A stretch of 64,000 nt of DNA from Cryptosporangium minutisporangium (GTDB lineage Bacteria > Actinomycetota > Actinomycetes > Mycobacteriales > Cryptosporangiaceae): assembly GCF_039536245.1 (NCBI RefSeq), contig NZ_BAAAYN010000031.1, positions 1-64,000 on the forward strand. Direction: 5' to 3'. The notes under the pieces are model-generated. The model searched no databases and was not told the DNA's origin. It worked only from the letters and a program-made list of their open reading frames with translations. Below are positions 6,627 to 64,000 of this stretch, one piece after another (the first letter of the stretch is position 1; each line of letters starts with the position of its first letter). The position numbers and the translations under genes were made by a program.

Positions 6627-7090
6627 CGCGCGCTCCTCTCTCACCGGACGAGGGCCGGCCGGATGGCGGTTTGCCGGAGGCGGGCGCCGACGCCCCGTTG
6701 CGCGACGCGGGATTCGAATTCATGCCATTGGTGAATGGGCAATTCTTTTCGTAGTCCGGATGAGTAAAACTGTGGGTGGGTGCGCACTGACGGTCGGCAT
6801 TCCGTGTTTCGGACGGATCGGTGCACATCTTCGTTCGGCGGGGTATCCGGCCAGTTCAGGGCCGGTGCGGCGGTAAGGCTGGTGGTCACGCGCACTCCGG
6901 TGGATCGAGCCGATATGACGCGCCAACGCAAGGGCCCCGACGGCGTGCGTGTCGCGCTTGGAATCACGGGCCGCGACGTGACCGGGTTCACTGTTGAGTG
7001 GGATTCCCGGAAAATTGCGCGCTGAGTTCGTCGAACGAATACGCAATTAACGGATCGCGTCCGCACGAATGCGCGCCGCACCCGCGAGCC
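6627..7090. other. Intergenic gap without recognised gene
   Basis: About 460 bases of visibly less GC-rich DNA lie between the start of the CAP-like gene and the end of the LysR gene. Short open frames exist on both strands but none has a convincing start site, codon pattern or recognisable domain. The stretch must hold the promoter of the leftward CAP-like gene. I could not identify an RNA gene in it. Confidence 0.5.
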
Positions 7091-8005: not shown

Positions 8006-8028
8006 CAGTTCAGCTTACGATTATCGTC

Positions 8029-8048
8029 CAGAAAATTGAGCTTTTCTG
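8029..8048. promoter_or_regulatory. Palindromic LysR-type operator
   Basis: A perfect 7-bp inverted repeat CAGAAAA/TTTTCTG with a 6-bp spacer lies in the middle of the divergent lysR-exporter intergenic region, 24 bp from the lysR start. It is the only strong dyad there and is AT-rich against the local background. Confidence 0.6.
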
Positions 8049-8077
8049 AATCGGCTGGCCGAGGCAGGCTGGATGCC

Positions 8078-9013: not shown

Positions 9014-9068
9014 CGTCCGTCGTCCCGGGCCGATGCCGTCCGGGGTGACTCTCTGCGAGGAGGGGACC

Positions 9069-10031: not shown

Positions 10032-10118
10032 GCACGGAGATTTTCGCCGGTTGAGGGACGGAATGCACCCATCTTGGGTTGCATGATCGACCCTCTGCGA
10101 CGGTGTACGACAGTAGCC

Positions 10119-10316
10119 ATGGGGATGCACGCGTTTCTCGGCTGTCCGGACCCGCGATGCGACTACGCGGTCCGGTTTCATGCGCCCGACCTCCTGTCGC
10201 CACCGGAGTCGCTGGTCCGGGCGTGGGCCCGCCTGCTCCAGGACGAACACCCACTCCATCCGCGTGCGCTTCCCCGTCGCCGGAGCCAGACGGTGCCGGT
10301 CATACCCGCACCCTGA
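10119..10316 (+). CDS. Possible small protein of unknown function
   Basis: A 65-codon frame in the 340-base gap between the FAH gene and the second HD gene. The first half reads like a real protein (AFLGCPDPRCDYAVRFHAP, then PPESLVRAWARLLQDEH), with a CxDPxC pair and His that could form a small metal site. The tail is Arg/Pro-rich and less convincing. There is no clear ribosome site before ATG 10119, so it might be leaderless or not expressed. No homologue is recognised. Confidence 0.3.
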   Translation: MGMHAFLGCPDPRCDYAVRFHAPDLLSPPESLVRAWARLLQDEHPLHPRALPRRRSQTVPVIPAP

Positions 10317-10373
10317 GCGTCCGCGGACGCGAATTACTCTGCCGAAGAGGTACTCGCGAGCGGGAGGTCCGGA

Positions 10374-10961
10374 GTGGTGACGACACGGTCAGATCTCGTC
10401 GCGGCCGCGCGCGAGCTCGCCGGTGAGCTGCTCGGGTTCGACTCCGAGCGGTGGCGCCACACCGCTGGTGTCGCGGAGCGGGCGGCCGAACTCGCCCCGG
10501 CGGTTCCCGCCGATGACCTGGAGTTACTGGTCGCCGGTGCGTGGCTGCACGACATCGGCTACGCGTCGACGCTGCGCGTCACCGGGTTCCACCCCCTGGA
10601 CGGCGCCGACGGCCTCCGGGACCGAGGGTGGGAGCCCCGACTGTGCGCACTCGTCGCCCACCACTCCGGCGCGCGGTTCGTCGCGGAGGACCGCGGGTTG
10701 GGCGAGGAACTCCATCGGTACGCCGAGGAGCGGTCGGCGCTGGCCGACGCTCTCACCTACGCCGACCAGACCGTCGGCCCCGACGGCCGGCGGATGGCGT
10801 TCGAGGACCGGATCGTCGACATGCTCCGGCGGCACGGCCCCAACTCGCCGAACGCGCGGGTTCATCCCCGTCGCGGCCCGTACCTCGCCGCGATCGCCGG
10901 CCGCGTCCGCACCCGCCTCGCGGTGGACGGCGCACCGCCTACCGGCGAAGTACCCAGCTGA
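10374..10961 (+). CDS. HD-domain phosphohydrolase (paralogue 2)
   Basis: A 195-residue HD-domain protein, the same length as the one at 2800-3387 and clearly its paralogue. ERWRHTAGVAERAAELAP and AGAWLHDIGYASTLRVTGFHPLDGADGL give H...HD, LVAHHSGARFVAEDRGLGEEL the second histidine pair, and DALTYADQTVGPDGRRM the last Asp. All metal ligands are intact in both copies. GTG 10374 has GGGAGG 6 nt upstream; a GTG at 10377 is equally possible. It overlaps the convergent hotdog-protein gene by 23 bases. The substrate is unknown. Confidence 0.82.
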   Translation: MVTTRSDLVAAARELAGELLGFDSERWRHTAGVAERAAELAPAVPADDLELLVAGAWLHDIGYASTLRVTGFHPLDGADGLRDRGWEPRLCALVAHHSGARFVAEDRGLGEELHRYAEERSALADALTYADQTVGPDGRRMAFEDRIVDMLRRHGPNSPNARVHPRRGPYLAAIAGRVRTRLAVDGAPPTGEVPS

Positions 10962-11388
10962 ACGTCGCCCTGCTCACGACCGTGCCGTCCGCCGCGCGCG
11001 CCTCGGCCGTCGTCTCCAGGGCCAGCTTCCGGCCGTCGCCGTCCACCAGCGCGCGCAGCTTCGCCCGCTGTTCCACAGTCAACGACGACGTTCCGGTCAG
11101 GACGCCTCGGGCCGGCGCCAGGAAGTCCAGCGACACCGAGCGAGCGACAGTGGTCACCGTCGCCAGGTGGTCCTCGGTCAGGTGGCCGAGGACGGCGCCG
11201 AGCGCCGCGGCGTCGAGGAGGCCCAGCAGGGGGCCGGCCTGCACGGCGCCGTACGGGTTGCGGAGGCGTGCGTCGTCCGGCAGCTCGACCTCCGCGCCGT
11301 TCGGGTCGATCGTGCGTACTCGGAGACCGATCAGGGCGTTGGCCGGGACGTCTTCCAGGGCCTTCGCGGCCCACGCAAACGGCGTCAC
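10939..11388 (-). CDS. Hotdog-fold thioesterase-like protein (DUF4442/PaaI type)
   Basis: A 149-residue protein with the hotdog pattern of DUF4442/PaaI proteins: a short N-terminal helix, IGLRVRTIDPNGAEVELPDD, RNPYGAVQAGPLLGLLDAAALGAVLGHL (the central helix), then strands VSLDFLAPARGVLTGTSSL and ALETTAEARAADGTVVSRATFSWVL. RNPYG..QAG resembles the HN.YG..HGG turn of DUF4442 but lacks the usual catalytic Asp/His pair. Acyl-CoA thioesterase activity is therefore possible but unproven. The start is a GTG. It is divergent from moeA. Confidence 0.7.
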   Translation of the reverse strand: MTPFAWAAKALEDVPANALIGLRVRTIDPNGAEVELPDDARLRNPYGAVQAGPLLGLLDAAALGAVLGHLTEDHLATVTTVARSVSLDFLAPARGVLTGTSSLTVEQRAKLRALVDGDGRKLALETTAEARAADGTVVSRATFSWVLRR

Positions 11389-11489
11389 CAGCCCAGCTCA
11401 ACACGCTCAGCGGGCCGCCGGGTGAACAGGGATGGACACCTCGATGCGCGTCTGGCCGCATGCTGTAGACACTGATCGATCGGGATGAG

Positions 11490-12659
11490 GTGGACGTGAC
11501 GCACGCGGAGGCGCGCACGGTGACCGGATGGAGCGCGGCCCGCGCACTCGCGCGCACGCTCGCCGAGCCGGTCGACGTCGAGAGCGTGCCGCTCGCGCTC
11601 GCCGCCGGACGGGTACTCGCCGCGGACGTTCGTTCCCGTACCCGCGTGCCCGGCTTCGACACCGCGGCGATGGACGGGTACGCCGTGGCCGGTCCGGGGC
11701 CGTGGCGAGTGACCGGCCGGGTTCTCGCCGGAGCCGCGGCGCCGGGTGTCGTCGAGCCGGGAACCGCGGTCGAGATCGCGACCGGCGCGCCGGTGCCGGA
11801 CGGCTCCGATGCGGTGGTGCCGTACGAGGACGTTCGCTGCGGTGAGGGCCTGGTGGAGGCGCCTCCTCCCCGGCGGATCCACATCCGTCGAGCCGGCGAG
11901 GATCTCCGGCCCGGGGACGTGCTCGCGACCGCCGGGCGGGACGTGACCTCGCCGCTGGTCGGGCTGCTCGCGCAGGGCGGTACCGACGTGGTTCCGGTCC
12001 GGCGCCGCCCGTCCGTTCGGCTGGTGGTCACCGGCGACGAGGTCGTGCAGGCCGGGCTGCCCGGCGCCGGTCAGGTGCGGGACGCGCTCGGGCCGCTCGT
12101 CATCGCGCTGGCGGAGCGGGCCGGAGCGTCCACTCCGGAGCTCGTCCCGGTGCCGGACGACCGGGACCGGCTACGCGCCACCCTGATCGCCGACGGAGCC
12201 GACGTCCTCGTCGTGACCGGCTCGTCGTCGGTCGGGCGCGCCGACCACCTGCACGCGGTGCTGGCCGACCTGGACGCGGTCCGGCACGTCGACGGGGTGG
12301 CTTGTCGGCCCGGCCATCCGCAGCTGCTGGCCCGGCTGCCGGACGGCCGCTGGGTGGTCGGGCTGCCCGGCAACCCGTTCGCGGGCCTGGTCGGCTGCGT
12401 CACGCTGCTGGCTCCGCTGCTGGATGGGCTGCTCGGCCGCGTCGAGCGGCCTCCGGTCCGGGTTCGGCTGGCCGGTGATGCCCAGCCGCCGGGGGCGGTG
12501 ACCCGCCTGCTTCCGGTGCGGGTCACCGACGGTGCTGCCGTTCCGGTGGCGGACGCCGGACCGGCGCGGTTGCGGGCGGCAGCCGACGCCGACGGCGTGG
12601 CAGTGCTGGAGCCGGGCTGGCAGCCCGATTCCCCCGTCGAGGTACTGCACTTCCCGTGA
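11490..12659 (+). CDS. moeA: Molybdopterin molybdotransferase MoeA
   Basis: A 389-residue MoeA-family protein that inserts molybdate into adenylated molybdopterin. Family marks: LALAAGRVLAADVRSRTRVPGFDTAAMDGYAV (the PxFDxSxMDGYA block, residues ~36-66), VEIATGAPVPDGSDAVVPYED (TGAxxPxGADAVVxxE), IHIRRAGEDLRPGDVL, VRLVVTGDEVV, VLVVTGSSSVGRADHL (TGGxSVGxxD; the second Gly is Ser here), and WVVGLPGNPFAGLVGCVTLLAPLL (LPGNPVxA). GTG 11490 or GTG 11496 could be the start. It is shorter at the C-terminal domain than E. coli MoeA but complete in motifs. There are no other molybdenum cofactor genes in the window. The odd Ser in the SVG block may mean a divergent paralogue. Confidence 0.85.
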   Translation: MDVTHAEARTVTGWSAARALARTLAEPVDVESVPLALAAGRVLAADVRSRTRVPGFDTAAMDGYAVAGPGPWRVTGRVLAGAAAPGVVEPGTAVEIATGAPVPDGSDAVVPYEDVRCGEGLVEAPPPRRIHIRRAGEDLRPGDVLATAGRDVTSPLVGLLAQGGTDVVPVRRRPSVRLVVTGDEVVQAGLPGAGQVRDALGPLVIALAERAGASTPELVPVPDDRDRLRATLIADGADVLVVTGSSSVGRADHLHAVLADLDAVRHVDGVACRPGHPQLLARLPDGRWVVGLPGNPFAGLVGCVTLLAPLLDGLLGRVERPPVRVRLAGDAQPPGAVTRLLPVRVTDGAAVPVADAGPARLRAAADADGVAVLEPGWQPDSPVEVLHFP

Positions 12660-12702
12660 GCCCGGGGGGCCACCTCCCGGCCGCGCCGCCCCACGGAGGC
12701 GA

Positions 12703-12800
12703 GTTTCGGGAAGGCCGCCGTTCCCGCGCCGCCCAGGGGCGGGTTTTCGGGAAGGCCACCGCTGGGCCGCTGCCCGGGGGCGGATTTTCGGGAAAATGAC
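12703..12800. repeat. Three-unit ~41-bp intergenic repeat, array A
   Basis: Three copies of a core TTTTCGGGAAGGCCACC-like sequence lie 41 bp apart (TCGGG at 12706, 12747 and 12788) between the convergent moeA and methyltransferase genes. The same core, at the same spacing and copy number, recurs at 26623-26719. The copies within an array are diverged; the third has TTTTCGGGAAAATGACC. The short GC-rich spacers can fold into weak hairpins. The function is unknown; it might serve as a transcription stop or a protein-binding array. Confidence 0.7.
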
Positions 12801-12825
12801 CGCGCCTGGCGCGCGGACGGGCGGC

Positions 12826-13791
12826 TCAGGTGCGGGTCGCGACGGCTAGGAAGCGCTCGGCGGCGTCCTCGTAGCGGTCGAGTCGCCAGCCGGTGTCCGC
12901 GGTGGACGCCCGCAACGGCGCCTCGGCGAGCGGCTCGTCCGGGCGCAGCGACCGGCCGTGGCGCGCGGCGAGCGCTGCCCGCCCGGTCGAGTGGAAGAGT
13001 ACGAGCCGGCCTCCGGGACGGGTGATCCGTGCGAGTTCGCGGAGCCCGGCGTCCGGATCGGGCAGGTGCATGAGGAGTCCGGCGGCGAAGACGCCGTCGG
13101 CGGACGCATCCGCGAACGGGAGGCGGCAGGCGTCGGCCAGCACCAGCGACGCGTGCTCGGTGACGCTGCGGGCCCGGGCCTCGGCGAGCATCTCCGGCGT
13201 GAGGTCGAGACCCACGACGACGCCGTCCGGGCCGACCGCGGAGCGCAGAGAGGGCAGCGCACGTCCGGTACCGCACCCGACGTCGACCAGCAGCCCGCCC
13301 GGCCGAAACCCGGCTTCGGCGACCGCGACGGCGTACGCGGGCAGGTCGTCGCCGAATCGGCGGTCCCAGGTCGACGCCTTCGCCGCGAAGAACGCGCGCG
13401 ACTCGGTCAGGTGCCAGCGATCGGACGTGGACAACCGGTCCGCGACCCGCCGGATCACCGGCCACGCCGGGTCACGCAGATCAACGACGATGTCGGCGTC
13501 CTCGGCGCGGTCGGCCCCGGGCGGCCCGCCGCGCAGCCGAACCACCACGTCCGCCGCTGCCAGGAGCCCCGCCCCGCCGGCCTCCACATCGGCCGACCCA
13601 CCGACCAGCACGTCGGCCGCGCTCGTCACCGCCGCCAGCCGCTCGGCGAACACCTCGGCGCCGACGCCGCCGACGACCACGGTGGCCCCGGCGGGCACCA
13701 CCTCGGACAGGCAGCGCAGCACCGCACTCCAGCGCTGCTGCTGAGTCTCGGTCAGCGCGGCCCACTCGGCATCGACCATGGGCACCATCAT
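12826..13791 (-). CDS. SAM-dependent methyltransferase (class I)
   Basis: A 321-residue protein with a variable N-terminal half (residues 1-130) and a class I methyltransferase core. FFAAKASTWDRRFGDDLPAYA precedes LLVDVGCGTGRALPSL (motif I), VVVGLDLTPEMLAEARAR (acidic end of strand 2), LVLADACRLPFADASADGVFAAGLLMHLPD (motifs II/III) and ELARITRPGGRLVLFHSTGR. The substrate is unknown. I chose ATG 13791, because it overlaps the TGA of the upstream regulator gene (ATGA), giving translational coupling; ATG 13779 is an alternative. The long open frame to 14001 is only the antisense of the regulator. It forms a two-gene operon with the GlxA-type regulator. Confidence 0.85.
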   Translation of the reverse strand: MMVPMVDAEWAALTETQQQRWSAVLRCLSEVVPAGATVVVGGVGAEVFAERLAAVTSAADVLVGGSADVEAGGAGLLAAADVVVRLRGGPPGADRAEDADIVVDLRDPAWPVIRRVADRLSTSDRWHLTESRAFFAAKASTWDRRFGDDLPAYAVAVAEAGFRPGGLLVDVGCGTGRALPSLRSAVGPDGVVVGLDLTPEMLAEARARSVTEHASLVLADACRLPFADASADGVFAAGLLMHLPDPDAGLRELARITRPGGRLVLFHSTGRAALAARHGRSLRPDEPLAEAPLRASTADTGWRLDRYEDAAERFLAVATRT

Positions 13792-14777
13792 GCCGGTGTC
13801 CGGCGCACCTCCCGGCCGCCCCGGGCTCGGTAGCGGAACACGTGCCGGTAGGTCTGCGGCGACACCTCGACCAGGCGCTGGAAGTGGTGCCGGAAGTTCG
13901 CGGGCGTTCCGAATCCGGCCAGTCGGGCGATCCGCTCGACCGGTTCGTCGGTGGTCTCCAGCAGCTCCTGGGCCCGGCGGACCCGCTGCTCGACCAGCCA
14001 CTGCAGCGGCGTGGCGCCGAGCGTCGTCCGGAAGCGCCTGGCGAACGTCGTCGGGCTCAGGTGGGCCTGCCGGGCCAGGTCGGCGACGGTGAGTGGCTGG
14101 TCGAGTCGCTCCTCGGCCCAGGCCAGCACCGGACCGAGGTCGTCGGGCTTGCGGGCGGCGATCGGCGTCGGGTGCTGGGCCTGGCTGCCCTGCCTGGGCG
14201 GCGGGACCACCATCCGTCGGGCCACCTCGGCGGCCACCGCCGATCCGTAATCACGCCGGACGATGTGCAGGCAGAGGTCGATGGCCGCGGCTGTGCCCGC
14301 ACTGGTCAGCAGGTTGCCGTCGTCGACGTAGAGCACGGTCGGATCCACCTGGACCCGGGGGAACCGGTGCGCGAAGTCCAGCGCGTTCATCCAGTGGGCG
14401 GTCGCCCGGCGGCCGTCGAGGAGACCGGCGGCGGCGAGCACGTACGCACCGGCGCAGAACGACACGATCCGCTTCCCGTCCCGGTGCGCGCGGCGCAAGG
14501 CGTCCAGCAGCGGCTCCGGCGGAGCGAGCTGGGTCGTCCGGTGGACGCCCGGCACCAGCACGGTGTCGGCCGCCACCAGGTCGTCGAGGTCGTACTTGGT
14601 GTCGACGGACAGCCCGGCCGCCGTCCGCAGCGGTCCCGGCTCCGCGGCGCAGAGGCGCAGCTCGTACCAGGGGTCGACGAGATCACTGCGGTCCAGTCCG
14701 AAGACCTCGCACGCCACCGCAAGCTCGAAAACGGGCAGGGAGTCGGTCACCGCCACTGCTACGACGTGCGGGCCCAT
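13788..14777 (-). CDS. GlxA-type AraC family regulator
   Basis: A 329-residue regulator with an N-terminal DJ-1/PfpI-like domain (VVAVAVTDSLPVFELAVACEVFG..., with the nucleophile-elbow region RIVSFCAGAYVLAAAGLLDGRRATAHW, residues ~110-135) and a C-terminal AraC pair of HTHs (AEERLDQPLTVADLARQAHLSPTTFARRFR, then ARLAGFGTPANFRHHFQRLVEVSPQTYRH). The Cys in FCAGA is in place but such GlxA-type domains usually sense ligands rather than act as enzymes. It ends overlapping the methyltransferase start, and its start is 70 bases from the divergent amino-acid permease, which it may control. Confidence 0.9.
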   Translation of the reverse strand: MGPHVVAVAVTDSLPVFELAVACEVFGLDRSDLVDPWYELRLCAAEPGPLRTAAGLSVDTKYDLDDLVAADTVLVPGVHRTTQLAPPEPLLDALRRAHRDGKRIVSFCAGAYVLAAAGLLDGRRATAHWMNALDFAHRFPRVQVDPTVLYVDDGNLLTSAGTAAAIDLCLHIVRRDYGSAVAAEVARRMVVPPPRQGSQAQHPTPIAARKPDDLGPVLAWAEERLDQPLTVADLARQAHLSPTTFARRFRTTLGATPLQWLVEQRVRRAQELLETTDEPVERIARLAGFGTPANFRHHFQRLVEVSPQTYRHVFRYRARGGREVRRTPA

Positions 14778-51914: not shown

Positions 51915-53120
51915 ATGACCGAGCCGGTGGTGCTCGAACCCGCCGAGGTCTGGGCCTATTTGGTCGGCCGGGAACTGCTGCCCGCCGATGCCAGCGGTGT
52001 CGTGCGGGAGGTCGGCGACGGCAACATGAACCGGGTCTTCGTGGCGATCCCGGACGACAGCGCGATCGCCGGCCTCGCGGTCAAGCAGGCGCCGCCGTGG
52101 ATCCAGAAGCTCGGGCCGTCGGCCCCGATGAGCCCCGAGCGCGCCCTGATCGAGGCTCGCGCGCTCCGTAGGTTCGCCGAGTACGCCCCCCGCCAGACGC
52201 CGCGCGTGCTGGATGTCGACCCCCCGCGGTTCGCGTTCACGATGGAGGACCTCTCCGACCTCACCGTCCTCCGCACGGCCCTGAACGACGGCGCCGGCCT
52301 GGGCCGCACGTCCGCGGAGGTGGGTGAACTCGTCGGCCGGGTCACGTTCGCGACCAGCGTCGCCGGCGCGACACCGCAGGCCCGTGCCGCGCTGCTCGCC
52401 GACTCGGTGAACCCGCTGCTCGCCGAGGTCACGCTGCAATATCTCCTCGGCGACCCGTTCACGACGGCCGAACACAATCACCACCATCCGGCGCTGAACA
52501 CCGCACTCCAGAAGCTCCGCAGCGACCCCGCCGTCCGCACCGAACTCGCCACCCTGCGCGCGGACTTCGGCGGGAACGCCCAAGCCCTCGTCCACGGCGA
52601 CCTGCACAGCGGCAGCGTCATGGTCGGCGTCCGCAAGGGGGAGCCGGTCGTCCGGGTGATCGACCCGGAGTTCGCGATGGTCGGCCCGATCGGTCTGGAC
52701 CTCGGGCTCTACCTGGCCAACGTGGTGATCGCCGCGGTCCGCGCCTACGCCCAGGGTGACGCCGAGCGGGGCAACGACCACGTCCTGTCGATCGCCGACT
52801 GCTGGGACTCGTTCTGCGCCGCCTGGCGCGAGGGCTGGCCCGGTCGCGTCGATCCGCTGCTCGACGACGGCTGGCTGCTGCGCCACCTCCGGGGCGTCTG
52901 GCACGACACGCTCGGTTACGCGGCGGTCGAGCTGGTCCGGCGAGTGGCGGGCTACTCGCACGCGTCCGACCTCGAGACGCTGCCCGACCCCGGGCCGGCG
53001 TCGGCGGTCGTGCTCGGTCTGGGCCACAAGCTGCTCGTGGACCGCGAGATCTGCGGTAGTCGGCCGGATCCCCGCGCGCTCGCGCACCTCGTCAGTACCT
53101 CGTGGGAGGCCCAGCAGTGA
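51915..53120 (+). CDS. mtnK: S-methyl-5-thioribose kinase
   Basis: A 401-residue MtnK. EVGDGNMNRVFVAIPDD (nucleotide loop), VKQAPPWIQKLGPSAPMSPERALIEARAL, the catalytic ALVHGDLHSGSVMV (HGDLHxGS, residues ~233-243) and VIDPEFAMVGPIGLDLGLYLANVV (metal-binding DPEFAxxGPxxxD) are diagnostic. It phosphorylates methylthioribose from S-adenosylmethionine by-products. ATG 51915 has GAGGGAGG upstream. First of four overlapping salvage genes; the 177-base leader shows no known SAM riboswitch. Confidence 0.94.
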   Translation: MTEPVVLEPAEVWAYLVGRELLPADASGVVREVGDGNMNRVFVAIPDDSAIAGLAVKQAPPWIQKLGPSAPMSPERALIEARALRRFAEYAPRQTPRVLDVDPPRFAFTMEDLSDLTVLRTALNDGAGLGRTSAEVGELVGRVTFATSVAGATPQARAALLADSVNPLLAEVTLQYLLGDPFTTAEHNHHHPALNTALQKLRSDPAVRTELATLRADFGGNAQALVHGDLHSGSVMVGVRKGEPVVRVIDPEFAMVGPIGLDLGLYLANVVIAAVRAYAQGDAERGNDHVLSIADCWDSFCAAWREGWPGRVDPLLDDGWLLRHLRGVWHDTLGYAAVELVRRVAGYSHASDLETLPDPGPASAVVLGLGHKLLVDREICGSRPDPRALAHLVSTSWEAQQ

Positions 53121-54163
53121 GGCCCGTGCTCGACGACAGCGTCCGCCTGACCGACGAGGGGGTACGGATCCTCGACCGCCGGGTCTTCCCGGCTCGGCAG
53201 GAGTGGGTGCTCGCCCGCTCCGCGGCCGAGGTCGCGACCGCGATCCGCGAGATGGTCACGCAGAGCTCCGGTCCGTTCTACGCCGGGCTGGCCGGCCTGC
53301 GGTTGAGCGCGCGCCTGCACCGGGGTTCCTCGCTCGAGAAAGCCCTCACTGCTTTGGCGGACGACGGTCAGCTGCTCACCGTCGCCAGGCCGACCAACAA
53401 CCACGTCCGGGACGCCGTCCGCGAGGTCCTCGCCGCGGTGGACGCCGCCGCCCCGACCTCGGCGGACCAGGTCGCGCAGATCGTCGAGGCCGAGGCTGCC
53501 CAGCTCGAGGCCGCCTACCGGGGCGGCAGCGCGGAGCTGGGGCGGCTCACCGCGGGCCTGCTGCCGGACGGCGCCCGGGTGCTCACCCACTGCTGGATGG
53601 ACGCGTACCTGATCGGGCTGGTGCAGGAGGCTTCGCGCGCCGGGCGGCAGTACGAGTGGGTCGTCACCGAGACCCGCCCGTACCTGCAGGGCGCACGGCT
53701 CACCGCGCACACGCTCGCCGAGATGGGGCAGTCGCTGACGCTGGTCACCGACTCGACGGCGGCGTCGGTCCTGGCCGGTCAGTCGCGGCTGGGCCGACTC
53801 GACGCGCTGGTCACGGCCGCGGACCGGGTGACGATGGACGGGCACGTGATCAACAAGGTCGGGACGCTCGCCCACGCCGTGGCGGCCACCGCGTTCGACG
53901 TCCCGTTCTACGCGCTGGTGCTCGCCCCGGACCCCACCGCCGCCACCGCGTCCGACGTCGTGATCGAGGAGCGGGACGGCGCAGAGGTGCTGTCCACGCT
54001 GGGGGAGCGCACCGCGTCGCCGCTGGTCGAGCGCGGGTACTACCCGGCGTTCGACGTCACACCGCCCCGGTTCGTCCGGCGGATCGTCACCGACCGGGGC
54101 GTCTTCGAGCCGGCCCGGGTCGGCGAGTACCACGGCACCACCGAGAAGGAGCACCGTTCATGA
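53117..54163 (+). CDS. mtnA: S-methyl-5-thioribose-1-phosphate isomerase-like protein
   Basis: A 348-residue member of the MtnA/eIF2B-alpha/ribose-1,5-bisphosphate isomerase family. VARPTNNHVRDAVREVL, LLPDGARVLTHCWMDAYLIGL (catalytic Cys about residue 163), VVTETRPYLQGARLTAHTL and DALVTAADRVTMDGHVINKVGTLAHAVAA (general-acid Asp) are present. The Cys loop reads THCWMDAY rather than the TxCN of most MtnA enzymes, so it belongs to a divergent subgroup, but position between mtnK and mtnC/mtnB makes isomerase function likely. GTG 53117 overlaps the mtnK stop (GTGA). Confidence 0.85.
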   Translation: MRPVLDDSVRLTDEGVRILDRRVFPARQEWVLARSAAEVATAIREMVTQSSGPFYAGLAGLRLSARLHRGSSLEKALTALADDGQLLTVARPTNNHVRDAVREVLAAVDAAAPTSADQVAQIVEAEAAQLEAAYRGGSAELGRLTAGLLPDGARVLTHCWMDAYLIGLVQEASRAGRQYEWVVTETRPYLQGARLTAHTLAEMGQSLTLVTDSTAASVLAGQSRLGRLDALVTAADRVTMDGHVINKVGTLAHAVAATAFDVPFYALVLAPDPTAATASDVVIEERDGAEVLSTLGERTASPLVERGYYPAFDVTPPRFVRRIVTDRGVFEPARVGEYHGTTEKEHRS

Positions 54164-54927
54164 CCGCCCATCCACTCCCCACCTGGACCGCCCGGGTGGT
54201 CGTCCTCGACATCGAGGGCACCACCAGCGCCGCCGGCTTCGTGCAGGGCGACCTGTACGACTACGCCAGGCCGCGGCTCCGGCCGTGGATCGAGTCGCAC
54301 GCGGACGACCCGGCGATCGCTGATGCGGTCGTGGCCATCCGCGCCGAGGGCGGGCTGGCCGAGACCGCCGACCTGGACGCCGTCCTCGCGGTGCTGCACG
54401 GCTGGATGGACAGCGACGTCAAGGCGACGCCGCTGAAGACGATCCAGGGCCAGATCTGGGCGGCCGGATTCGCCGCCGGGGAGTTGTCCTCGCACTTCTT
54501 CGACGACGTCGTCCCGCGGCTGCGGGAGTGGCACGGACGCGGAGTGCGGCTCGCGGTGTTCTCGTCCGGATCGGTGGCGAGCCAGGTCCCGTGGTTCCGG
54601 CACGCGGACGCCGGTGACCTGACGCCGATGATCGACGCGTACTTCGACACGGTCAGCGCCGGGAGCAAGCGGGAGGCCGGCTCGTACGAGAAGATCGCGT
54701 CCGCGCTCGGCGTCCCGGCAGGGGAGGCGCTGTTCCTCACCGACCTGCCCGCCGAGCTGGACGCCGCCCGTGCGGCCGGCTGGCAGGTGATCGGCGTCCG
54801 CCGGGAGGGCGAGCCGAACTACGCGGCCGACTTCGGCGACCACACGGTCGTCGACTCGTTCGCGGAGATCCACGTGGAGCCCGAGGCGGACGTGCGCGCC
54901 GAGGACGTCGCCGAGGACCGGGCATGA
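54160..54927 (+). CDS. mtnC: Enolase-phosphatase E1 (MtnC)
   Basis: A 255-residue HAD-superfamily enzyme. VVVLDIEGTTSAAGFVQGDLYDYARPRL is the E1 motif I (DIEGTT), GVRLAVFSSGSVASQVPWF motif II (FSSGS), SAGSKREAGSYEKIASALG motif III Lys region (GxKxxxxSY), and ALFLTDLPAELDAARAAGWQVIGVRREG motif IV (FLTD). It enolises and dephosphorylates the diketo intermediate to acireductone. ATG 54160 overlaps the mtnA stop (ATGA). The acidic C-terminal tail is slightly extended. Confidence 0.93.
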   Translation: MTAHPLPTWTARVVVLDIEGTTSAAGFVQGDLYDYARPRLRPWIESHADDPAIADAVVAIRAEGGLAETADLDAVLAVLHGWMDSDVKATPLKTIQGQIWAAGFAAGELSSHFFDDVVPRLREWHGRGVRLAVFSSGSVASQVPWFRHADAGDLTPMIDAYFDTVSAGSKREAGSYEKIASALGVPAGEALFLTDLPAELDAARAAGWQVIGVRREGEPNYAADFGDHTVVDSFAEIHVEPEADVRAEDVAEDRA

Positions 54928-55559
54928 CGGGCCCCGATTACCGCGTCGAGGCGCGCGGCGTCCTGGAAGCCGCCGGAAAGGCGCTGGCCGCGGAGTCGGC
55001 GCGGTTCGCCGGTATCGGGTGGATGCGTGGGACCTCCGGCAACCTCTCGATCGTGCTCAACCGGAACCCTCTGCGGCTCGCGGTCACCGTCAGCGGCCTC
55101 GACAAAGGTGAGCTGACCAGTGCGGACGTCGTCGTCGTGGACGAGTACGGCCGGGCGGTGGAGGAGCAACCCCGGCCCGACCTGATCCCGTCCGCCGAGG
55201 CCGAACTGCACGCGCGGGTCGCGTCGCTGTCGGGCGCGGGCGCGGTGGTGCACGTCCACGCGCTGCAGGCCGTGCTGGCCGGGCACTGGTGGCCGGACGG
55301 CATCGAGCTGCGCGACCTGGAGATGCTCAAGGGCATCGGGCGGCTCGCTCACGACGAGACCGTCGCGATCCCGGTGGTGCCGAACTCGCAGGACATGAAG
55401 GTGCTCGGGGACGACGTCGCGAAGGTCTTCGACCCCGGCGTGCCCGCGGTCGTCGTCGCTCGGCACGGCATGTACGCCTGGGGCCGGGACCTGCTCCAGG
55501 CCCGTCACCACACCGAGATCGTCGAGTTCCTGCTCCAGTTCAAGGTCGAGACCCGGTAG
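54924..55559 (+). CDS. mtnB: Methylthioribulose-1-phosphate dehydratase
   Basis: A 211-residue class II aldolase-fold enzyme. WMRGTSGNLSIVLN (phosphate loop), VTVSGLDKGELTSADVVVVDEYG, IPSAEAELHARVAS (catalytic Glu), AVVHVHALQAVLA (zinc histidines HVH) and VVARHGMYAWGRDLLQARHHTEIVEFLL (third zinc His) match MtnB. It dehydrates MTRu-1-P to the diketone used by MtnC. ATG 54924 overlaps the mtnC stop. Convergent with the frameshifted MFS gene (20-base overlap). No acireductone dioxygenase gene (mtnD) follows. Confidence 0.94.
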   Translation: MTGPDYRVEARGVLEAAGKALAAESARFAGIGWMRGTSGNLSIVLNRNPLRLAVTVSGLDKGELTSADVVVVDEYGRAVEEQPRPDLIPSAEAELHARVASLSGAGAVVHVHALQAVLAGHWWPDGIELRDLEMLKGIGRLAHDETVAIPVVPNSQDMKVLGDDVAKVFDPGVPAVVVARHGMYAWGRDLLQARHHTEIVEFLLQFKVETR

Positions 55560-58628: not shown

Positions 58629-59372
58629 ATGACACACATCGCTTTGATCACCGGCGCCAACAAGGGCATCGGCTACGAGACGGCCCGTCTGCTCGGTGAG
58701 CAGGGGATGACCGTGCTGCTCGGAGCCCGCGACGAAACACTGGGACAAAAGGCGGCCGAGACGCTGGGCGCGACCTTCGTCCAGCTCGACGTCACCGACG
58801 ACGCGTCGATCCGGCGGGCGGCGGACTTCGTCGAGGCGGAGTACGGACGGCTCGACGTCCTGGTCAACAACGCCGGCATCATCGGCGACCTGGCCGAGGC
58901 CCGCGGGTTGCCGAGCGGCGTCACCCGGGAGGCGCTGCGCCAGGTCTTCGAGACGAACGTCTTCGGTGTGGTGGCGGTGACGAACGCGTTCCTCCCGCTG
59001 CTGCGCCGCGCGGACGCTGCCCGGATCGTGAACGTGTCCAGCGAAGTGGGGTCGGTCGCAACGGTCAGCGACCCGGAGAACCCGCTCTACCAGCTGGTCG
59101 GCATTCCGTACCCGGCGTCGAAGACGGCGCTGAACATGGTGACCGCGATGTACGCCAAGGAGCTGACGGACACCCCGATCAAGGTCAACGCGGCCAACCC
59201 CGGCTACTGCGCCACCGACCTCAACGGGCACGCCGGCTTCCGGACGCCCGAGCAGGGCGCGTCGGTGAGCGTCGCGCTGGCCACCCTGCCCGAGGACGGT
59301 CCGAGTGGTCAGCTGTGGGGTTCCCTGACGCTCGCCGGCGGGACCGACACGAACGGTGCGCTGCCCTGGTGA
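58629..59372 (+). CDS. Short-chain dehydrogenase/reductase
   Basis: A 247-residue classical SDR. IALITGANKGIGYETARLL (TGxxxGIG), LDVLVNNAGIIGD (NNAG), ARIVNVSSEVGS (catalytic Ser) and YPASKTALNMVTAMYAKEL (YxxxK) are all intact, and PGYCATDLNGHAGFRTPEQGA matches plant/bacterial carbonyl-reductase-like SDRs. NADPH-dependent reduction of a carbonyl is likely; substrate unknown. ATG 58629. Controlled, by position, by the MmyB-type XRE regulator. Confidence 0.92.
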   Translation: MTHIALITGANKGIGYETARLLGEQGMTVLLGARDETLGQKAAETLGATFVQLDVTDDASIRRAADFVEAEYGRLDVLVNNAGIIGDLAEARGLPSGVTREALRQVFETNVFGVVAVTNAFLPLLRRADAARIVNVSSEVGSVATVSDPENPLYQLVGIPYPASKTALNMVTAMYAKELTDTPIKVNAANPGYCATDLNGHAGFRTPEQGASVSVALATLPEDGPSGQLWGSLTLAGGTDTNGALPW

Positions 59373-59415
59373 ACCACGTTCTGCCCGCCCGATCCGCACT
59401 GCCCGCCTCGGAAAC

Positions 59416-59436
59416 CGAGCTCCAGGCCGGAGCTCG
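59416..59436. terminator. Short dyad before the TIR-NTPase gene
   Basis: CGAGCTCC-AGGCC-GGAGCTCG, an 8-bp stem with a 5-nt loop, lies 44 bases after the SDR stop and 43 bases before the chosen start of the TIR-NTPase gene. It could stop SDR transcription or serve as an operator for the downstream system. Confidence 0.45.
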
Positions 59437-59478
59437 CTGACTACTGTGGTGGAGGGGCGTCGGGACGGGGGCGCGGTC

Positions 59479-61827
59479 GTGGTCGAACGCAGCGTGTGGG
59501 TCAGCCACGCGGAGCACGATCACCCGTGGGCCGACGGGCTGGTCACCGCGCTGAACGCCACGGGTGTGCCCGTCGCCGGAACCACGTGGTGTGGTGGGCC
59601 GCTGCGCGCGTCTTTCACCGGTGTCGTTCTTCCGCTGCTGTCGCCCGACTACCTCAACAGCCCGGTCGCCGCCGCAGAGCTCACTCTCGCCGGGGACCTG
59701 GTCAGGAGCGGCTCGACGTGGCTCCAGCCCGTGCTGATACGTCGGGTTGTCGCTCCGCCGCTGCCCGACGGCTGCACGCCGATCGATCTGAGCAGCGTGC
59801 AACCGAGCGAGGTCGAGCAACGGCTGCGGAACGTCGTCGACCGGGTGCACGAGTTGCTGACCACGCCGCCGCAACCGCGGGCGACAGCGCGTCGTGGCGG
59901 CGTGGTCGGCCAGCTCCGGGCCACCCTGTTGGCGGCGCCCGAAGATCGGCCGCTCGCCGAGCAAGTCGCGCTGACTCTGCGGTCCGCCGGCCCGCTCGGA
60001 AGCCTCGCGTTGGTGCTCGTCGGGGACGATCGCGGAACACTGCGTGATCCGGGCCGAGTCCTGCTGATGTTGATCACCAGAGCTCTGATCAACTCCGGTG
60101 TGTTGGAGAGCCGACCGCTCCTCGCTGCGCTGCGGCGGCAACGCGGTGGCGCGCTCACCGTCCTGCCCGTCATCGGCGGCCCGGTCTCCTGGCACCAGTC
60201 GTCGATCCGTCACTTACCCCCGTTGCCACGTGGCGGGCGTCCGCTGACCAGTTGGGAGAGCCTCGACGAGGCGCTCCAGAGCGTCGCCCATGGAACTGCT
60301 CTGGCGTGCGCGGAGATCGAGCGTCGGTCGCGGGAAGCTCCACAGCCCGCCCCTCCCGAGGCCGTGCCTGATCGGCCCGTCCACCTGGTCGGCCAGGTGT
60401 TCCGGCGAAGTGGAACGCCGGAGCACACATTCGTCGAACCACCGGAGTTCCACCGGGTGACCTTGTCGCTCACCGAGCCAGGGCGAAGCGTCGTTTTCCA
60501 GGGCCCCTCCGGAATCGGCAAGACGACGCTGCTGGAACGGGCTACGGGTGCAGTCGGCTTCCACCTCGTCGACCTCGACGTCATCGCGGGCGAGGCGGTC
60601 GACGCAAGGCAGATACGGCGTATTCGCTCCGCCTCGACGCCAGTCGTGATCGACGATGCTCATCGCATCCCGGTGGAGGTGCGCGATCTCGTGGCAGCCG
60701 AGATCAAGGCCTGCGCCGACGCCGGGGGCCCTCGGAAATTAGTGCTGGTCGGCTCGTCCGGGGTTGCTACGTACTTGACGGCGAGCCGACCCGATTTGAT
60801 CACTCGGCTCGACGTCTACTCCCTCGGGCGGGTCGACGACGAACGGATCCTCAGCCTGATCAGGCGAGGTGAGCAAGCACTCAACGTCTCGTTCACCCAG
60901 CGGGACGCGATCGTCCGTACCGCAGCCGGCAGCCTGCTGACCGCGCAGATGCTGTGCTGGGAGTTGGCAGCGTCCGCCGGAATCAGTGGCACGACCGCGA
61001 TCCACACGTCGGTGAACACGGATATCGGGCTGGTCATCGAGCATGTGCTTCGCGTCTGCCAAGAGCGCTACGGGGCAGTCATCCGCGCGTTCGTCGCGCT
61101 GGACGGGCCGCGCAAGATCGGTTGCGCTCGACTGCTGGTGGCGTTGTCACAGACCGAGGACGGCGTGCTCCAGCTAACGGACTCGCCGTCGGCAAGGACA
61201 GTCCTCGACGCGGGTGACCGGTTCGCTCCCCACCTCTGGGTCGAGCGAGGTGCCGGACTTCTTCTTGCGGAAGACCCGCAACTGGTGTTCTACCTTCGCC
61301 GCCTGACGCTGGAGACGCTGGCGGCTATGGCTGGTAAGCGCGTCCCACAACCACGAGACCAAGTCCTGGTCTGGCACAGCGAGGCCGACGCCAGAATCTG
61401 GCGGGAACTCGCCGGCGAACTGGACGAAAACCTCGCGGTCGACGTCTGGAACGAGTCACGGATCGTGAGCGGCGATCGCTGGCGAAGTGAGTTCGCCGCC
61501 GCGCTCAGCAGGGCGACGGACGCGGTCGTGCTGGTGGGGCCGGGCTTGCTCGCGTGGCCCCAGGTGGAAGGTGGCGCGCTGCCGGGCCTACTGGCCGAGG
61601 CCGCTGACGACGGTTGTCACGTACGAGCCCTCGTGACTCGCCCTGGGCTCCCGGCGGACCATCCCTTCGTGCGCTACCTGCCGGTCGGTCCGCCGGTGAA
61701 GCCGCTGAGCATGCTCCGGCCGGCGATGCGTGGCGACGTGTGGCGACGGCTCGTCCGCGCGTTCGACTCAACCGGTCGGGCTGCGGCGACCGACGACCTA
61801 GCGCGCAGCGACGACCTACCATCGTGA
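59479..61827 (+). CDS. TIR-TIR-P-loop NTPase-TIR protein (putative immune NTPase)
   Basis: A 782-residue protein that I read as four modules. TIR-1 (~3-125): VWVSHAEHDHPWADGLVTAL, VVLPLLSPDYLNSPVAAAEL with the Glu expected of a TIR NADase. TIR-2 (~150-285), degenerate: VLLMLITRALINSGVLESRP, VLPVIGGPVSWHQ, LPRGGRPLTSWESLDEA. NTPase (~320-610): Walker A GPSGIGKT (342-349), Walker B STPVVIDDAH, sensor-like VLVGSSGV. TIR-3 (~627-735): VLVWHSEADARIWREL, AVVLVGPGLLAW, with Ala where ELP is usual. No membrane helix is seen. GTG 59479 places TIR-1 at the N-terminus; GTG 59449 is possible. TIR-NTPase proteins often sense invaders; this role is inferred. The next gene starts 63 bases on. Confidence 0.78.
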   Translation: MVERSVWVSHAEHDHPWADGLVTALNATGVPVAGTTWCGGPLRASFTGVVLPLLSPDYLNSPVAAAELTLAGDLVRSGSTWLQPVLIRRVVAPPLPDGCTPIDLSSVQPSEVEQRLRNVVDRVHELLTTPPQPRATARRGGVVGQLRATLLAAPEDRPLAEQVALTLRSAGPLGSLALVLVGDDRGTLRDPGRVLLMLITRALINSGVLESRPLLAALRRQRGGALTVLPVIGGPVSWHQSSIRHLPPLPRGGRPLTSWESLDEALQSVAHGTALACAEIERRSREAPQPAPPEAVPDRPVHLVGQVFRRSGTPEHTFVEPPEFHRVTLSLTEPGRSVVFQGPSGIGKTTLLERATGAVGFHLVDLDVIAGEAVDARQIRRIRSASTPVVIDDAHRIPVEVRDLVAAEIKACADAGGPRKLVLVGSSGVATYLTASRPDLITRLDVYSLGRVDDERILSLIRRGEQALNVSFTQRDAIVRTAAGSLLTAQMLCWELAASAGISGTTAIHTSVNTDIGLVIEHVLRVCQERYGAVIRAFVALDGPRKIGCARLLVALSQTEDGVLQLTDSPSARTVLDAGDRFAPHLWVERGAGLLLAEDPQLVFYLRRLTLETLAAMAGKRVPQPRDQVLVWHSEADARIWRELAGELDENLAVDVWNESRIVSGDRWRSEFAAALSRATDAVVLVGPGLLAWPQVEGGALPGLLAEAADDGCHVRALVTRPGLPADHPFVRYLPVGPPVKPLSMLRPAMRGDVWRRLVRAFDSTGRAAATDDLARSDDLPS

Positions 61828-61890
61828 CGTGGGGAACGCGGATCTGACCCGCCGACACAGGAGCGCTCCGATCGATCGCGCGAGGTGGCG

Positions 61891-63732
61891 ATGAAAGTCC
61901 AGCCACGACAGCAGCTGCTCGACATCTGGCACGGAGTCGCTCGGCACTCCTATGCGGATGGTGAGTGGCGATGGGGCTTTCGAGAGGGGCGGAACTCGGT
62001 CAGCGACGCCGAGCAGCTGCTCTGCCTGATGTATCCGGCAGCGGAGATCGCGTCGTTCAGTCTGGAACGGCCTGACCACACCTCCGACGACGTCCTCCAT
62101 GCGCTGGCACGCCTCGGCAGTAGCGTCGAGATTCCCCGGACGCTGGTCTCGGCCCTGCTGGACTACATGCAGACTTACTCCCACGACGGAACACCGCTGT
62201 TTCCCGGGGGCAGCTACTTCGGGGCGGAAGATCCGGGCCGTGAGATCACCGAGGAGCAACGCGGTCTGGACGTGGTGGAGGCGTTTGCGAGCTCGATCCA
62301 GCTGTCGCTCGCCACGCTGGCGTTCGCGAAGGTGTTCCGGACCGTGATCACCCGGCGAGACCTTCTGGAGGCTGTGAACGACCTCGAGTCGCTGGCCGGG
62401 GCGCGGCTGAGCGCAGCCATGGTCGGTCTCCTGCGAAGCTTCAGCGTTCAGGTGTTCGAGTCCGGATCGCTGGCTGCCCAGTCGCTGGTCGGCATGCTCA
62501 ACCAGGCGAACGAGCCGGAAGGACGCGTCACCGAGGCGCTGCGGGAATCGCTCGGTGAGGTTCGGGCCGGCCTACGAGATCTCTCGGTGGGGTCCGGTCA
62601 CAGCGGGGTGGACCTCGACGATCCGACGCTTCTGTTCGAGTGCGGGTGGTCGTGGGGAATCGTCCGGGAGGCTCCTCGGATCGACACATCCGAACCGATC
62701 GGTTTTCAGCCGGAAGGGTTGGCGCCGAACACGCCCTACCTCTACTTCACGGTGAGCGCGCTGGAGAGCATCCGTGATCTCAGCTCGGAGCGCACTCGGT
62801 TGCTTGGTCTTCTCAACGAAGAGCAACAGCGGTTCGCCAACGCGCTCCAACTGCGGTGGGACCTCACCCAGCGGTACTGGGCGACGATAGCGACGTTCGG
62901 GGCGGGGCGATGGCCGATCGAAGACGTGCCGTGGCGCACCTCGGACGGTGAGGAGTCCGAGTACTTCACCCTGCTGGTCACGTCGATGGTCGCGCACAAC
63001 TTCGAGCGGAGACGGGCGGGGGAGGCGGACCTCGCGCGAGTGACCCAGGTACTCGGCGAACTGGCCAGCCGCGGTCGGATCACCCGCCGAGCGCTCGCGG
63101 ACGACACCGCGGTCATCCGGCTGCACGCGCCGGGGGTGGCGCTAGCCCTCCCGGGCAGCGAGAAGCTCGGGTCGTCACGGCTCACCTGGGTGGTGACTGA
63201 CTATGCGGTGGTATTGCTGGGCCACCTGGCCCATCTCGCGCGCCAGTCCCGCAGCACTGAGCTGCGCGGTGAGATGCTGGAGTTGATCGACAGCACCTGG
63301 GAGCACCTGCATCAGCGCCGGATGACCAAGGCCGGTGGTGGGTCGCTCTGGGACGATCCGAGCGCGATCTTTCCAGGACTTCCGCCGCCGGTGAGCGAGA
63401 AGCCATCCTGGTACTACACCCAACGCGTCGTGAAGGCGCTGGTTCAACTGGCCCGCCTAGCCGCGAGCTCTCCGCTGCGAAGTGAGCGCTTGACCCAGTA
63501 CGCGATGGACTTGTTGCTCGAGGCCGAGCACGCCTTCGACCAGGAGCTTCTGAACGGGTCGATGGAGGCCGGACCGTCGATGCAGTACAGCATGCGGCAA
63601 GTCCGCGCACGACTCCGCCGCGCGCGAAAGATCGTGCCGGAGCGTCCGGGCTCGGCGTCCGCGCTGGCCTTAGCGGTGCTGCGTGACCTGGATCTTCTCG
63701 TCGCAGCTCGGCAAGACGCAGGGATTGGGTAG
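61891..63732 (+). CDS. SCO2524-family-like helical protein
   Basis: A 613-residue, largely alpha-helical soluble protein with no recognised catalytic motif, signal peptide or membrane helix. The start (QPRQQLLDIWHGVARHSYAD, WGFREGRNSVSDAEQLLCLMYPAAEI) and SGVDLDDPTLLFECGWSWGIV recall, from memory, the Streptomyces SCO2524 family; a profile search is needed. C-terminal TPR-like helices include RLTQYAMDLLLEAEHAFDQELL. ATG 61891 (CGAGG upstream) or GTG 61885. It lies between the TIR-NTPase and the variant P-loop gene, whose start is 2 bases after its stop, so the three are probably one operon and the proteins may act as a complex. Confidence 0.7.
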   Translation: MKVQPRQQLLDIWHGVARHSYADGEWRWGFREGRNSVSDAEQLLCLMYPAAEIASFSLERPDHTSDDVLHALARLGSSVEIPRTLVSALLDYMQTYSHDGTPLFPGGSYFGAEDPGREITEEQRGLDVVEAFASSIQLSLATLAFAKVFRTVITRRDLLEAVNDLESLAGARLSAAMVGLLRSFSVQVFESGSLAAQSLVGMLNQANEPEGRVTEALRESLGEVRAGLRDLSVGSGHSGVDLDDPTLLFECGWSWGIVREAPRIDTSEPIGFQPEGLAPNTPYLYFTVSALESIRDLSSERTRLLGLLNEEQQRFANALQLRWDLTQRYWATIATFGAGRWPIEDVPWRTSDGEESEYFTLLVTSMVAHNFERRRAGEADLARVTQVLGELASRGRITRRALADDTAVIRLHAPGVALALPGSEKLGSSRLTWVVTDYAVVLLGHLAHLARQSRSTELRGEMLELIDSTWEHLHQRRMTKAGGGSLWDDPSAIFPGLPPPVSEKPSWYYTQRVVKALVQLARLAASSPLRSERLTQYAMDLLLEAEHAFDQELLNGSMEAGPSMQYSMRQVRARLRRARKIVPERPGSASALALAVLRDLDLLVAARQDAGIG

Positions 63733-63734
63733 TC

Positions 63735-64000
63735 GTGTTGGTGTTCGCAGCGTCCGACAAAGGAGGCACCGGCCGATCGGTGACCGGTTGCAACGTCGCT
63801 CTGCGGTGCGCGCTGGGCGGCGACGACGTCAGCTACGTCGATTTCGACTTCGGGTCGCCGACGTCGGGCGCGATCTTCGGGATCAACGAGGCGGCGCGCG
63901 GCGTGACCGGTGGACTGCACTCTTACCTGGTCGACCAGGTAGCTGAGCCGGCTCGGCTGGATGTCTGGTCGAGGTCCGACCGCGACGAAGTGCGCGACCG
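63735..64000 (+). CDS. ParA/MinD-like variant P-loop protein (partial)
   Basis: A GTG start 2 bases after the previous stop; the frame stays open to the window end (88 codons). LVFAASDKGGTGRSVTGCNVA is a ParA/MinD deviant Walker A in which the terminal Lys of KGGxGK(S/T) is Arg. DDVSYVDFDFGSPTSGAIFG gives the Walker A' Asp of this group (VDxDxGSP). The protein resembles, from memory, the SCO2523 'variant P-loop' family that accompanies SCO2524. The Lys-to-Arg change may alter ATP hydrolysis. The 3' end and further genes of the system lie outside the window. Confidence 0.82.
   Translation, partial: MLVFAASDKGGTGRSVTGCNVALRCALGGDDVSYVDFDFGSPTSGAIFGINEAARGVTGGLHSYLVDQVAEPARLDVWSRSDRDEVRD

What the first reader, a model, noticed from the sequence alone, without database searches (positions are those of the whole stretch)
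59479..64000. Triple-TIR NTPase in an operon with a helical protein and a variant-ParA: candidate undescribed conflict system
A 782-residue protein appears to hold three TIR-like domains around one P-loop NTPase (TIR-TIR-NTPase-TIR). It is followed by a ~613-residue helical protein and, 2 bases later, a ParA-like protein. Single-TIR STAND/NTPase proteins are established immune or signalling proteins. Three TIR domains in one chain, with one apparently keeping the catalytic Glu and the others degenerate, plus a ParA-type partner, is not an architecture I know as described.
Basis: partly seen in the sequence, partly recalled or inferred. Interest (0 to 1): 0.88.

Follow-up and report, generated by a model that had tools for sequence, protein, structure and literature searches.

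The report
TIR-armed SCO2521-2525 gene island
A large actinobacterium carries, on what looks like a small inserted island, a version of a widespread but unexplained bacterial gene cluster that has gained several immune-type TIR domains, which suggests but does not prove that it works as a cell-suicide defence.

Summary
The 782-residue protein is TIR–(half) TIR–AAA+-type NTPase–TIR. Its third TIR has lost the catalytic-position Glu (A700) that four of four full-length homologues keep; its first TIR has one (E67). The partners are named NCBIfam families: SCO2524 (861 bits, cut-off 300) and SCO2523 "variant P-loop" (477, cut-off 200). The operon runs past the window: SCO2522, then SCO2521 fused to a fourth TIR that aligns with human SARM1 and keeps its Glu, then a convergent second SCO2524. 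The six genes form a block of about 9.5 kb, placed where a sister species has two abutting genes. SCO2524–2521 is a conserved actinobacterial cluster, often with a methyltransferase; of 60 SCO2524 loci examined, only this one has TIR hits within five genes. The triple-TIR NTPase is a rare family whose other full-length members lie elsewhere, so the pairing is not ancestral. Best reading: a TIR-armed derivative of the SCO2521–2525 cluster, probably an NLR-like, NAD-targeting conflict system (confidence 0.4). Nothing was tested experimentally. Searches of the held library showed no paper describing the cluster as a conflict system.

The parts
59373..64000 (.). in-window part of the inserted block (whole block about C31:59373-68860; window = C31:1-64000)
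   Evidence: the flanking genes abut in sister genome G026; GC3 0.79-0.83 for all six genes vs window mean 0.898 sd 0.034, but ordinary C66 copies are 0.83-0.90
58629..59372 (+). left flank: SDR-like gene, present in G026 and G036 near a TetR-like gene (names recalled from sequence)
   Evidence: 71% and 87% identity
59479..61827 (+). TIR-TIR-AAA+ NTPase-TIR protein, 782 aa
59479..59862 (+). TIR1 (residues 1-128); Glu at the catalytic position (E67, 59677-59679), which four homologues lack
   Evidence: Pfam TIR_2 9e-9; hhalign 97.8%; alignment
59890..60354 (+). TIR2 (residues 138-292), degenerate, C-terminal half recognisable
   Evidence: PADLOC ThsB 6e-11; TIR2 vs TIR3 92.6%
60412..61338 (+). 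AAA+-type NTPase and following region (residues 312-620); Walker A 60502-60534, Walker B 60643-60666
61342..61734 (+). TIR3 (residues 622-752); catalytic-position Glu replaced by Ala (A700, 61576-61578)
   Evidence: hhalign 98.5%; alignment
61885..63732 (+). SCO2524 family protein (NF040567)
   Evidence: 860.7 bits, cut-off 300
63735..64000 (+). SCO2523 family variant P-loop ATPase (NF040564), cut by the window end; Walker A KGGTGRS
   Evidence: 477 bits full length, cut-off 200; sequence

Best explanation
The window ends inside a six-gene block, most likely an insertion: TIR-TIR-AAA+-TIR NTPase, SCO2524, SCO2523 (variant ParA-like ATPase), SCO2522, SCO2521 fused to TIR, and a convergent second SCO2524. 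It is a TIR-armed derivative of the conserved SCO2521-2525 cluster: the methyltransferase (SCO2525) found in most such clusters is missing and TIR modules stand at both ends. Proposed mechanism: the SCO2524/2523/2522/2521 core is an ATP-dependent sensing or scaffold complex; the NLR-like NTPase oligomerises on a trigger and its TIRs, the third of which lacks the catalytic Glu, recruit by TIR-TIR contact the SCO2521-fused TIR, which hydrolyses NAD+ and stops the cell's growth, limiting phage or another invader. Shown by computation: gene content, families, the extra block relative to a sister species, TIR assignments, loss or retention of the Glu. Inferred: complex formation, NADase activity, trigger, immune outcome.
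For: Families over cut-off. Fused TIR: Pfam 37.6 bits over the cut-off of 28 and SARM1 2.6e-5 with RDEIAGA aligned to SARM1 HKEIVTA (that this Glu is catalytic is recalled). Tight packing: 2 bp between SCO2524 and SCO2523, a 4-base overlap next, then a 14-base overlap if SCO2521 starts at the ATG of C31:65610. The two genes that flank the block converge and overlap in G026. TIR3 lost its Glu while the partner TIR keeps one. TIR1 plus NTPase give plant TIR-NLR RPP1 as top row (Z 13.1). The two loci of 60 where SCO2524 stands without cluster partners both lie beside STAND-WD40 proteins.
Against: The NTPase-cluster pairing is seen once. The ordinary cluster is linked in print to growth and development, not defence: SCO2525 is cited as needed for normal growth (PMC11472566 passage) and as morphogenetic (PMC6344877 passage). 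Low GC3 is partly a family trait: ordinary C66 copies have 0.83-0.90. The island SCO2524 copies group with the genus's own copies, not with the STAND-side ones. Model confidence is low (pLDDT 51.9); the RPP1 match has rmsd 18.8 and a Z close to unrelated AAA+ rows. No phage or NAD evidence. 57-63 bp separate the NTPase from SCO2524. PADLOC gives no hit for SCO2524 or SCO2522 and only weak ones (17 bits or less) for SCO2523.
Confidence: 0.4

Rival explanations
1. A second SCO2521-2525-type cluster with its usual developmental or regulatory role; the added TIRs are protein-protein scaffolds and the NTPase is a regulator, with no NADase and no immunity.
For: The ordinary cluster is conserved across actinomycetes (58 of 60 loci keep SCO2524 with SCO2523); growth and development are what papers report; TIR3 has lost its Glu; the island SCO2524 copies group with those of the genus.
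Against: The methyltransferase, the gene with a published phenotype, is the one missing here; the fused TIR keeps a SARM1-like Glu; the block is absent from the same place in G026.
Confidence: 0.3
2. Two unrelated things landed side by side: a TIR-NTPase defence gene and a SCO2521-2524 cluster, sharing an insertion spot but no function.
For: NTPase homologues are unlinked to the cluster; the first gap, 57-63 bp, is the largest in the operon; the same spot holds other genes in G036; the low GC3 of SCO2522 and SCO2521 is also seen in the ordinary copies (0.83-0.84), so it does not prove a joint arrival.
Against: A second TIR is fused to SCO2521 at the other end of the same operon; same strand; GC3 of NTPase, SCO2524 and SCO2523 is 0.80-0.83 here against 0.92, 0.90 and 0.87 for the other copies in this genome.
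Confidence: 0.25
3. A decaying relic: a once active TIR system whose catalytic TIRs are being lost.
For: TIR1 shortened, TIR2 half, TIR3 without Glu; unusual codon use; the neighbouring TetR-like gene is truncated.
Against: All six ORFs are open over 9 kb, and Walker A, Walker B and the fused TIR's Glu are kept.
Confidence: 0.05

Closest known systems
SCO2521-SCO2525 cluster of actinomycetes (NCBIfam NF040565, NF040566, NF040564, NF040567, NF040568)
   Same: SCO2524-2523-2522-2521 in the same order and strand, each over its family cut-off
   Different: no SCO2525 methyltransferase recognised; NTPase with three TIRs in front; TIR fused to SCO2521; extra convergent SCO2524
TIR-NLR / TIR-STAND proteins (for example plant RPP1)
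   Same: TIR plus oligomerising-type NTPase in one chain; top structural row
   Different: TIRs on both sides of the NTPase, no repeat sensor domain found by Pfam, NTPase only weakly matched to nSTAND models
Thoeris (ThsB TIR)
   Same: TIR2 matches the PADLOC ThsB profile; the homologue in C57 matches it at 7e-39
   Different: no ThsA found in the scanned proteins; TIRs embedded in an NTPase and in SCO2521
SARM1-type NADase TIR
   Same: SCO2521-fused TIR aligns with residues 11-140 of a 148-residue SARM1 chain, Glu conserved
   Different: carried on a SCO2521 domain of unknown function; activity untested
ParA/MinD ATPases
   Same: KGG signature Lys kept, weak ParA/MinD-type N-terminal matches below cut-off
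   Different: KGGTGRS: the P-loop Lys is Arg in 56 of 59 sequences; in the other 3 the motif was not found in the called protein

Membership tests
SCO2521-2525 cluster | SCO2524 and SCO2523 over family cut-off and adjacent | tested here: met
   860.7 of 300 bits; 477.3 of 200 bits; 2 bp apart
SCO2521-2525 cluster | SCO2522 and SCO2521 follow in order | tested here: met
   368.8 of 200 and 190.1 of 150 bits
SCO2521-2525 cluster | SCO2525 methyltransferase in the cluster | tested here: not met
   no SCO2525-like gene among the L007 calls; recognised in 35 of 60 loci, so not universal either
TIR-NLR/STAND | TIR domain | tested here: met
TIR-NLR/STAND | STAND-type NTPase | tested here: inconclusive
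   AAA+ folds match; nSTAND models below cut-off
TIR-NLR/STAND | C-terminal repeat sensor (LRR, WD40, TPR, HEAT) | tested here: not met
   no repeat family in the Pfam scan of P0001 up to E = 1
Thoeris | ThsA (SIR2/SLOG or similar) partner | tested here: not met
   no such domain in the five operon proteins or the second SCO2524
Thoeris | cADPR-isomer signalling by ThsB | not testable with these tools
   needs biochemistry
SARM1-type NADase TIR | catalytic Glu | tested here: met
   SCO2521-TIR residue 399 aligned with the SARM1 Glu; catalytic role recalled
SARM1-type NADase TIR | NAD+ hydrolysis | not testable with these tools
   needs assay
ParA/MinD | deviant Walker A KGGxxK[ST] | tested here: not met
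   KGGTGRS: second Lys replaced by Arg
ParABS partition | ParB partner and parS | not tested
   no ParB-like family hit was seen in the scanned operon proteins, but ParB and parS were not searched for as such

The most novel reading that the evidence does not exclude
A previously undescribed conflict system: a core complex normally used in actinobacterial growth and development (SCO2524, variant ParA-like SCO2523, SCO2522, SCO2521) has been converted into an immune device by TIR capture at both ends, with the NTPase's TIRs acting mainly as recruiters and the SCO2521-borne TIR as the NAD-consuming executioner. More widely, SCO2524 may be a general partner of STAND proteins.
Probability: 0.33. 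Interest if true: 0.77.

Novelty: new variant of a known kind. Interest (0 to 1): 0.55.

Why it matters
SCO2521-2525 is a widespread actinobacterial cluster whose biochemical role I found stated nowhere in the passages seen; they tie it only to growth, morphology, SAM and HupS control. A version armed with TIR domains, together with two lone SCO2524 paralogues beside STAND proteins, gives a testable hint that the cluster may be a regulated switch that can be coupled to cell suicide. The split between a multi-TIR NTPase whose third TIR lost its Glu and a Glu-bearing partner TIR also makes a direct prediction about helper and executor TIRs.

Tried and rejected
Structure: AlphaFold of the full NTPase with only two sequences gave pLDDT 51.9. 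TIR1, TIR3 and the NTPase core are modest; TIR2 is not modelled, and TIR2 alone was no better than the whole (44.6), so it was not searched. Foldseek on the whole model showed AAA+ proteins only in the 50 rows listed.

PDB sequence searches with SCO2524, SCO2522 and SCO2521 profiles gave nothing credible. Pfam gave nothing for 12 of 12 SCO2522 members up to E = 0.1. Rfam (gathering threshold) and tRNA scans were empty. No sigma-70-type promoter was found, and three terminator-like hits against 2.8 expected. No direct repeat of 16 or more bases bounds the island; shorter ones were not looked for. I rejected 'the pair is ancestral', and 'element with its own integrase' because no such gene was recognised among the six.

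The GC3 argument for a foreign block is weaker than it looks. The six genes have 0.79-0.83, but the ordinary cluster genes on C66 have 0.90, 0.87, 0.83 and 0.84, so for SCO2522 and SCO2521 it is largely a family trait. Absence in G026 could also be a deletion there; in G012 the SDR-like gene was not called at this place, so it does not decide.

The lone-SCO2524/STAND link rests on two loci (L033, L105); in L033 the gene is split in two. nSTAND1 and NB-ARC matches together number 29-45 in each of three genomes at E up to 0.001, many below cut-off and some possibly counted twice, so chance adjacency is low.

Coverage limits: the SCO2524 matches of 17 genomes listed were not fetched. The printout was cut (part of L091 to L097 unseen there), but these loci are in the counts. 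My home-made gene caller can miss or shorten genes, so absences of a family are provisional. The TIR profile used for one search was built from 12 TIRs of this genome and does not cover DUF4062. The tree was printed without support values. Literature listings were partial: 15 of 37 papers, 8 of 15, 20 of 1,755, 10 of 404; two searches found none.
Full report
What is there. The window is the first 64 kb of a 153-kb contig (C31) of a 9.2-Mb genome of 152 contigs. Reading on past the window end, the operon is: TIR-NTPase 59479-61827; SCO2524 61885-63732; SCO2523 63735-64649; SCO2522 64646-65623; SCO2521 fused to TIR 65610-66986 (458 aa if it starts at that ATG); and, convergent with a 30-base overlap, a second SCO2524 66957-68819. 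SCO2524 and SCO2523 are 2 bp apart, SCO2523/2522 overlap by 4, SCO2522/2521 by 14; 57-63 bp separate the NTPase from SCO2524.

Domain check of the NTPase. TIR1 and TIR3 are supported by Pfam (36 bits; 24 bits, below the cut-off of 28) and by profile-profile comparison with nine other TIRs of the genome (97.8%, 98.5%; six control alignments below 1%). TIR2 is a half or very degenerate TIR: it matches the ThsB profile of PADLOC in five of five family members (6e-11 to 4e-14) and TIR3 of the same family (92.6%), but not the general TIR set (4%), hardly TIR1 (16-20%), and not Pfam in the window protein. The NTPase core is AAA+-like; the top structural row is the plant TIR-NLR RPP1 (Z 13.1, rmsd 18.8), close in Z to unrelated AAA+ rows, so this is a hint only.

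Catalytic residue. The family alignment shows the TIR3 Glu in four of four homologues (ELP/EVP) and Ala (A700) in the window protein. TIR1 of the window protein has a Glu (E67) where the four homologues do not. The TIR fused to SCO2521 hits human SARM1 at 2.6e-5, and its Glu399 aligns with the Glu of SARM1 HKEIVTA (its catalytic role is recalled).

What the partners are. NCBIfam gives SCO2524 860.7 bits (cut-off 300), SCO2523 477 (200), SCO2522 369 (200) and SCO2521 190 (150). A complete ordinary copy, with SCO2525-family methyltransferases at both ends, is in the same genome on C66. SCO2524 matched in 4 of 4 genomes of the genus, 40 of 397 of the order, 7 of 396 of the phylum and, by profile, 38 of 393 of the class. 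I fetched 60 loci holding SCO2524 (17 further genomes with hits were not fetched). Of these, 58 also hold SCO2523, and 35 a SCO2525-like methyltransferase, by my gene caller. A home-made TIR profile hits four of the 991 genes called; only the two in this block lie within five genes of SCO2524, the others being six and seven genes away. The 52 other SCO2521 proteins found are 363 aa or shorter as called. SCO2523 carries KGGTGRS, Arg in place of the P-loop Lys, in 56 of 59; in three the motif was not found in the called protein.

The NTPase family. In the order, 5 of 298 genomes match: own (two copies), G012, G036, a fragment in G026, and an NTPase-only match in G272. In the phylum, 2 of 396: own, and a TIR3-only match in G339. 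A pattern-limited scan of genome contigs (84,980 species) confirmed one locus, Frankia sp. CIT1, whose 863-aa protein shows the same order, TIR1 and TIR3 over the Pfam cut-off and TIR2 by PADLOC. In the genus the other copies sit among the same neighbours (own C57, G012, G036; G026 has only remnants there), and no SCO2521-2525 gene was recognised around them or around the Frankia copy. The window copy is the outlier: 33-36% identity to the others, which share 44-68% among themselves.

Insertion. In G026 the SDR-like and TetR-like genes that flank the block converge and overlap by 14 bases; in G036 about 1.4 kb with two other called genes lies between them; in G012 the SDR-like gene was not called there; here 9.5 kb lies between, and only the C-terminal part of the TetR-like protein is recognisable. 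A deletion in G026 is not excluded. The six genes have GC3 0.79-0.83; the 51 window genes over 150 aa (two of them from this block) average 0.898, sd 0.034. The other copies in this genome are 0.92 (C57 NTPase) and 0.90, 0.87, 0.83, 0.84 (C66 SCO2524, 2523, 2522, 2521), so the shift is clear for the NTPase and SCO2524 but small for SCO2522 and SCO2521. A tree groups both SCO2524 proteins of the block with the other copies of the genus (support values not printed), which fits transfer from a near relative or an old duplication better than a distant source.

STAND links elsewhere. Two of the 60 loci hold SCO2524 without any cluster partner: L105 (same strand, 17-base overlap with an nSTAND1-WD40 protein) and L033 (convergent with an NB-ARC-WD40 protein; SCO2524 split in two). 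In at least seven loci of one genus (g16) a 1401-1408-aa protein stands beside SCO2521; the one scanned (L085) is DUF4062-NACHT-HEAT. DUF4062 has been reported as a TIR-like NADase domain (PMC13174449, a preprint; start of abstract and passages seen). These support a link between SCO2524 and conflict proteins but are few and were noticed after the fact.

Literature. A search for SCO2521-2525 names gave three papers, of which I saw passages: the sco2521-sco2526 operon is in the HupS regulon and SCO2525 is cited as needed for normal growth (PMC11472566); SCO2525 is an HrdB target with a morphogenetic role (PMC6344877); PMC3017869 mentions it in a SAM context. The primary paper (Gehring 2004) is not held. 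Searches for the variant P-loop family and for multiple-TIR proteins gave no description of this system in the rows listed (titles and abstract starts only). The 2020 eLife survey of conflict systems (PMC7159879) has no 'SCO2' or 'KGG' (term counts and passages); it does report MinD/ParA-like domains, predicted inactive, among effector modules.

Conclusion. The finding is real and more interesting than a bare triple-TIR protein, but in a different way. It is a TIR-armed derivative of a known actinobacterial cluster, probably on an inserted block. The immune mechanism is inferred; the pairing is seen once. On checking the calls I added the GC3 control and other caveats; I left the odds as they were, because they rest mainly on the TIR fusion, the gene packing and the insertion.

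Noticed in passing
L105 (G722:C1:4368000-4387000) 9649-14395: A divergent SCO2524-family gene overlaps by 17 bases, same strand, an nSTAND1-WD40 protein of 1028 aa.
   Followed up: partly
L033 (G026:C20:75000-93000) 3943-9418: A split SCO2524-family gene converges with an NB-ARC-WD40 protein of 1231 aa; its larger piece groups with the L105 gene in the tree.
   Followed up: partly
L085-L089, L111, L112: In one genus (g16) a 1401-1408-aa protein (L085 copy: DUF4062-NACHT-HEAT) stands beside SCO2521 of the cluster in seven species seen.
   Followed up: partly
C31:68862-69239 (L007 10863-11240): TetR-like gene beside the island keeps only its C-terminal part; a longer gene is in G026 and G036.
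   Followed up: partly
C57:12515-14995 of the same genome (L028): Second triple-TIR NTPase with an intact TIR3 Glu and GC3 0.92, at a place shared within the genus; only remnants in G026.
   Followed up: yes
window 51915-55559 and C31:69375-74335: Two loci with kinase genes that look like methionine-salvage mtnK (names recalled; a short 77% DNA match).
   Followed up: no
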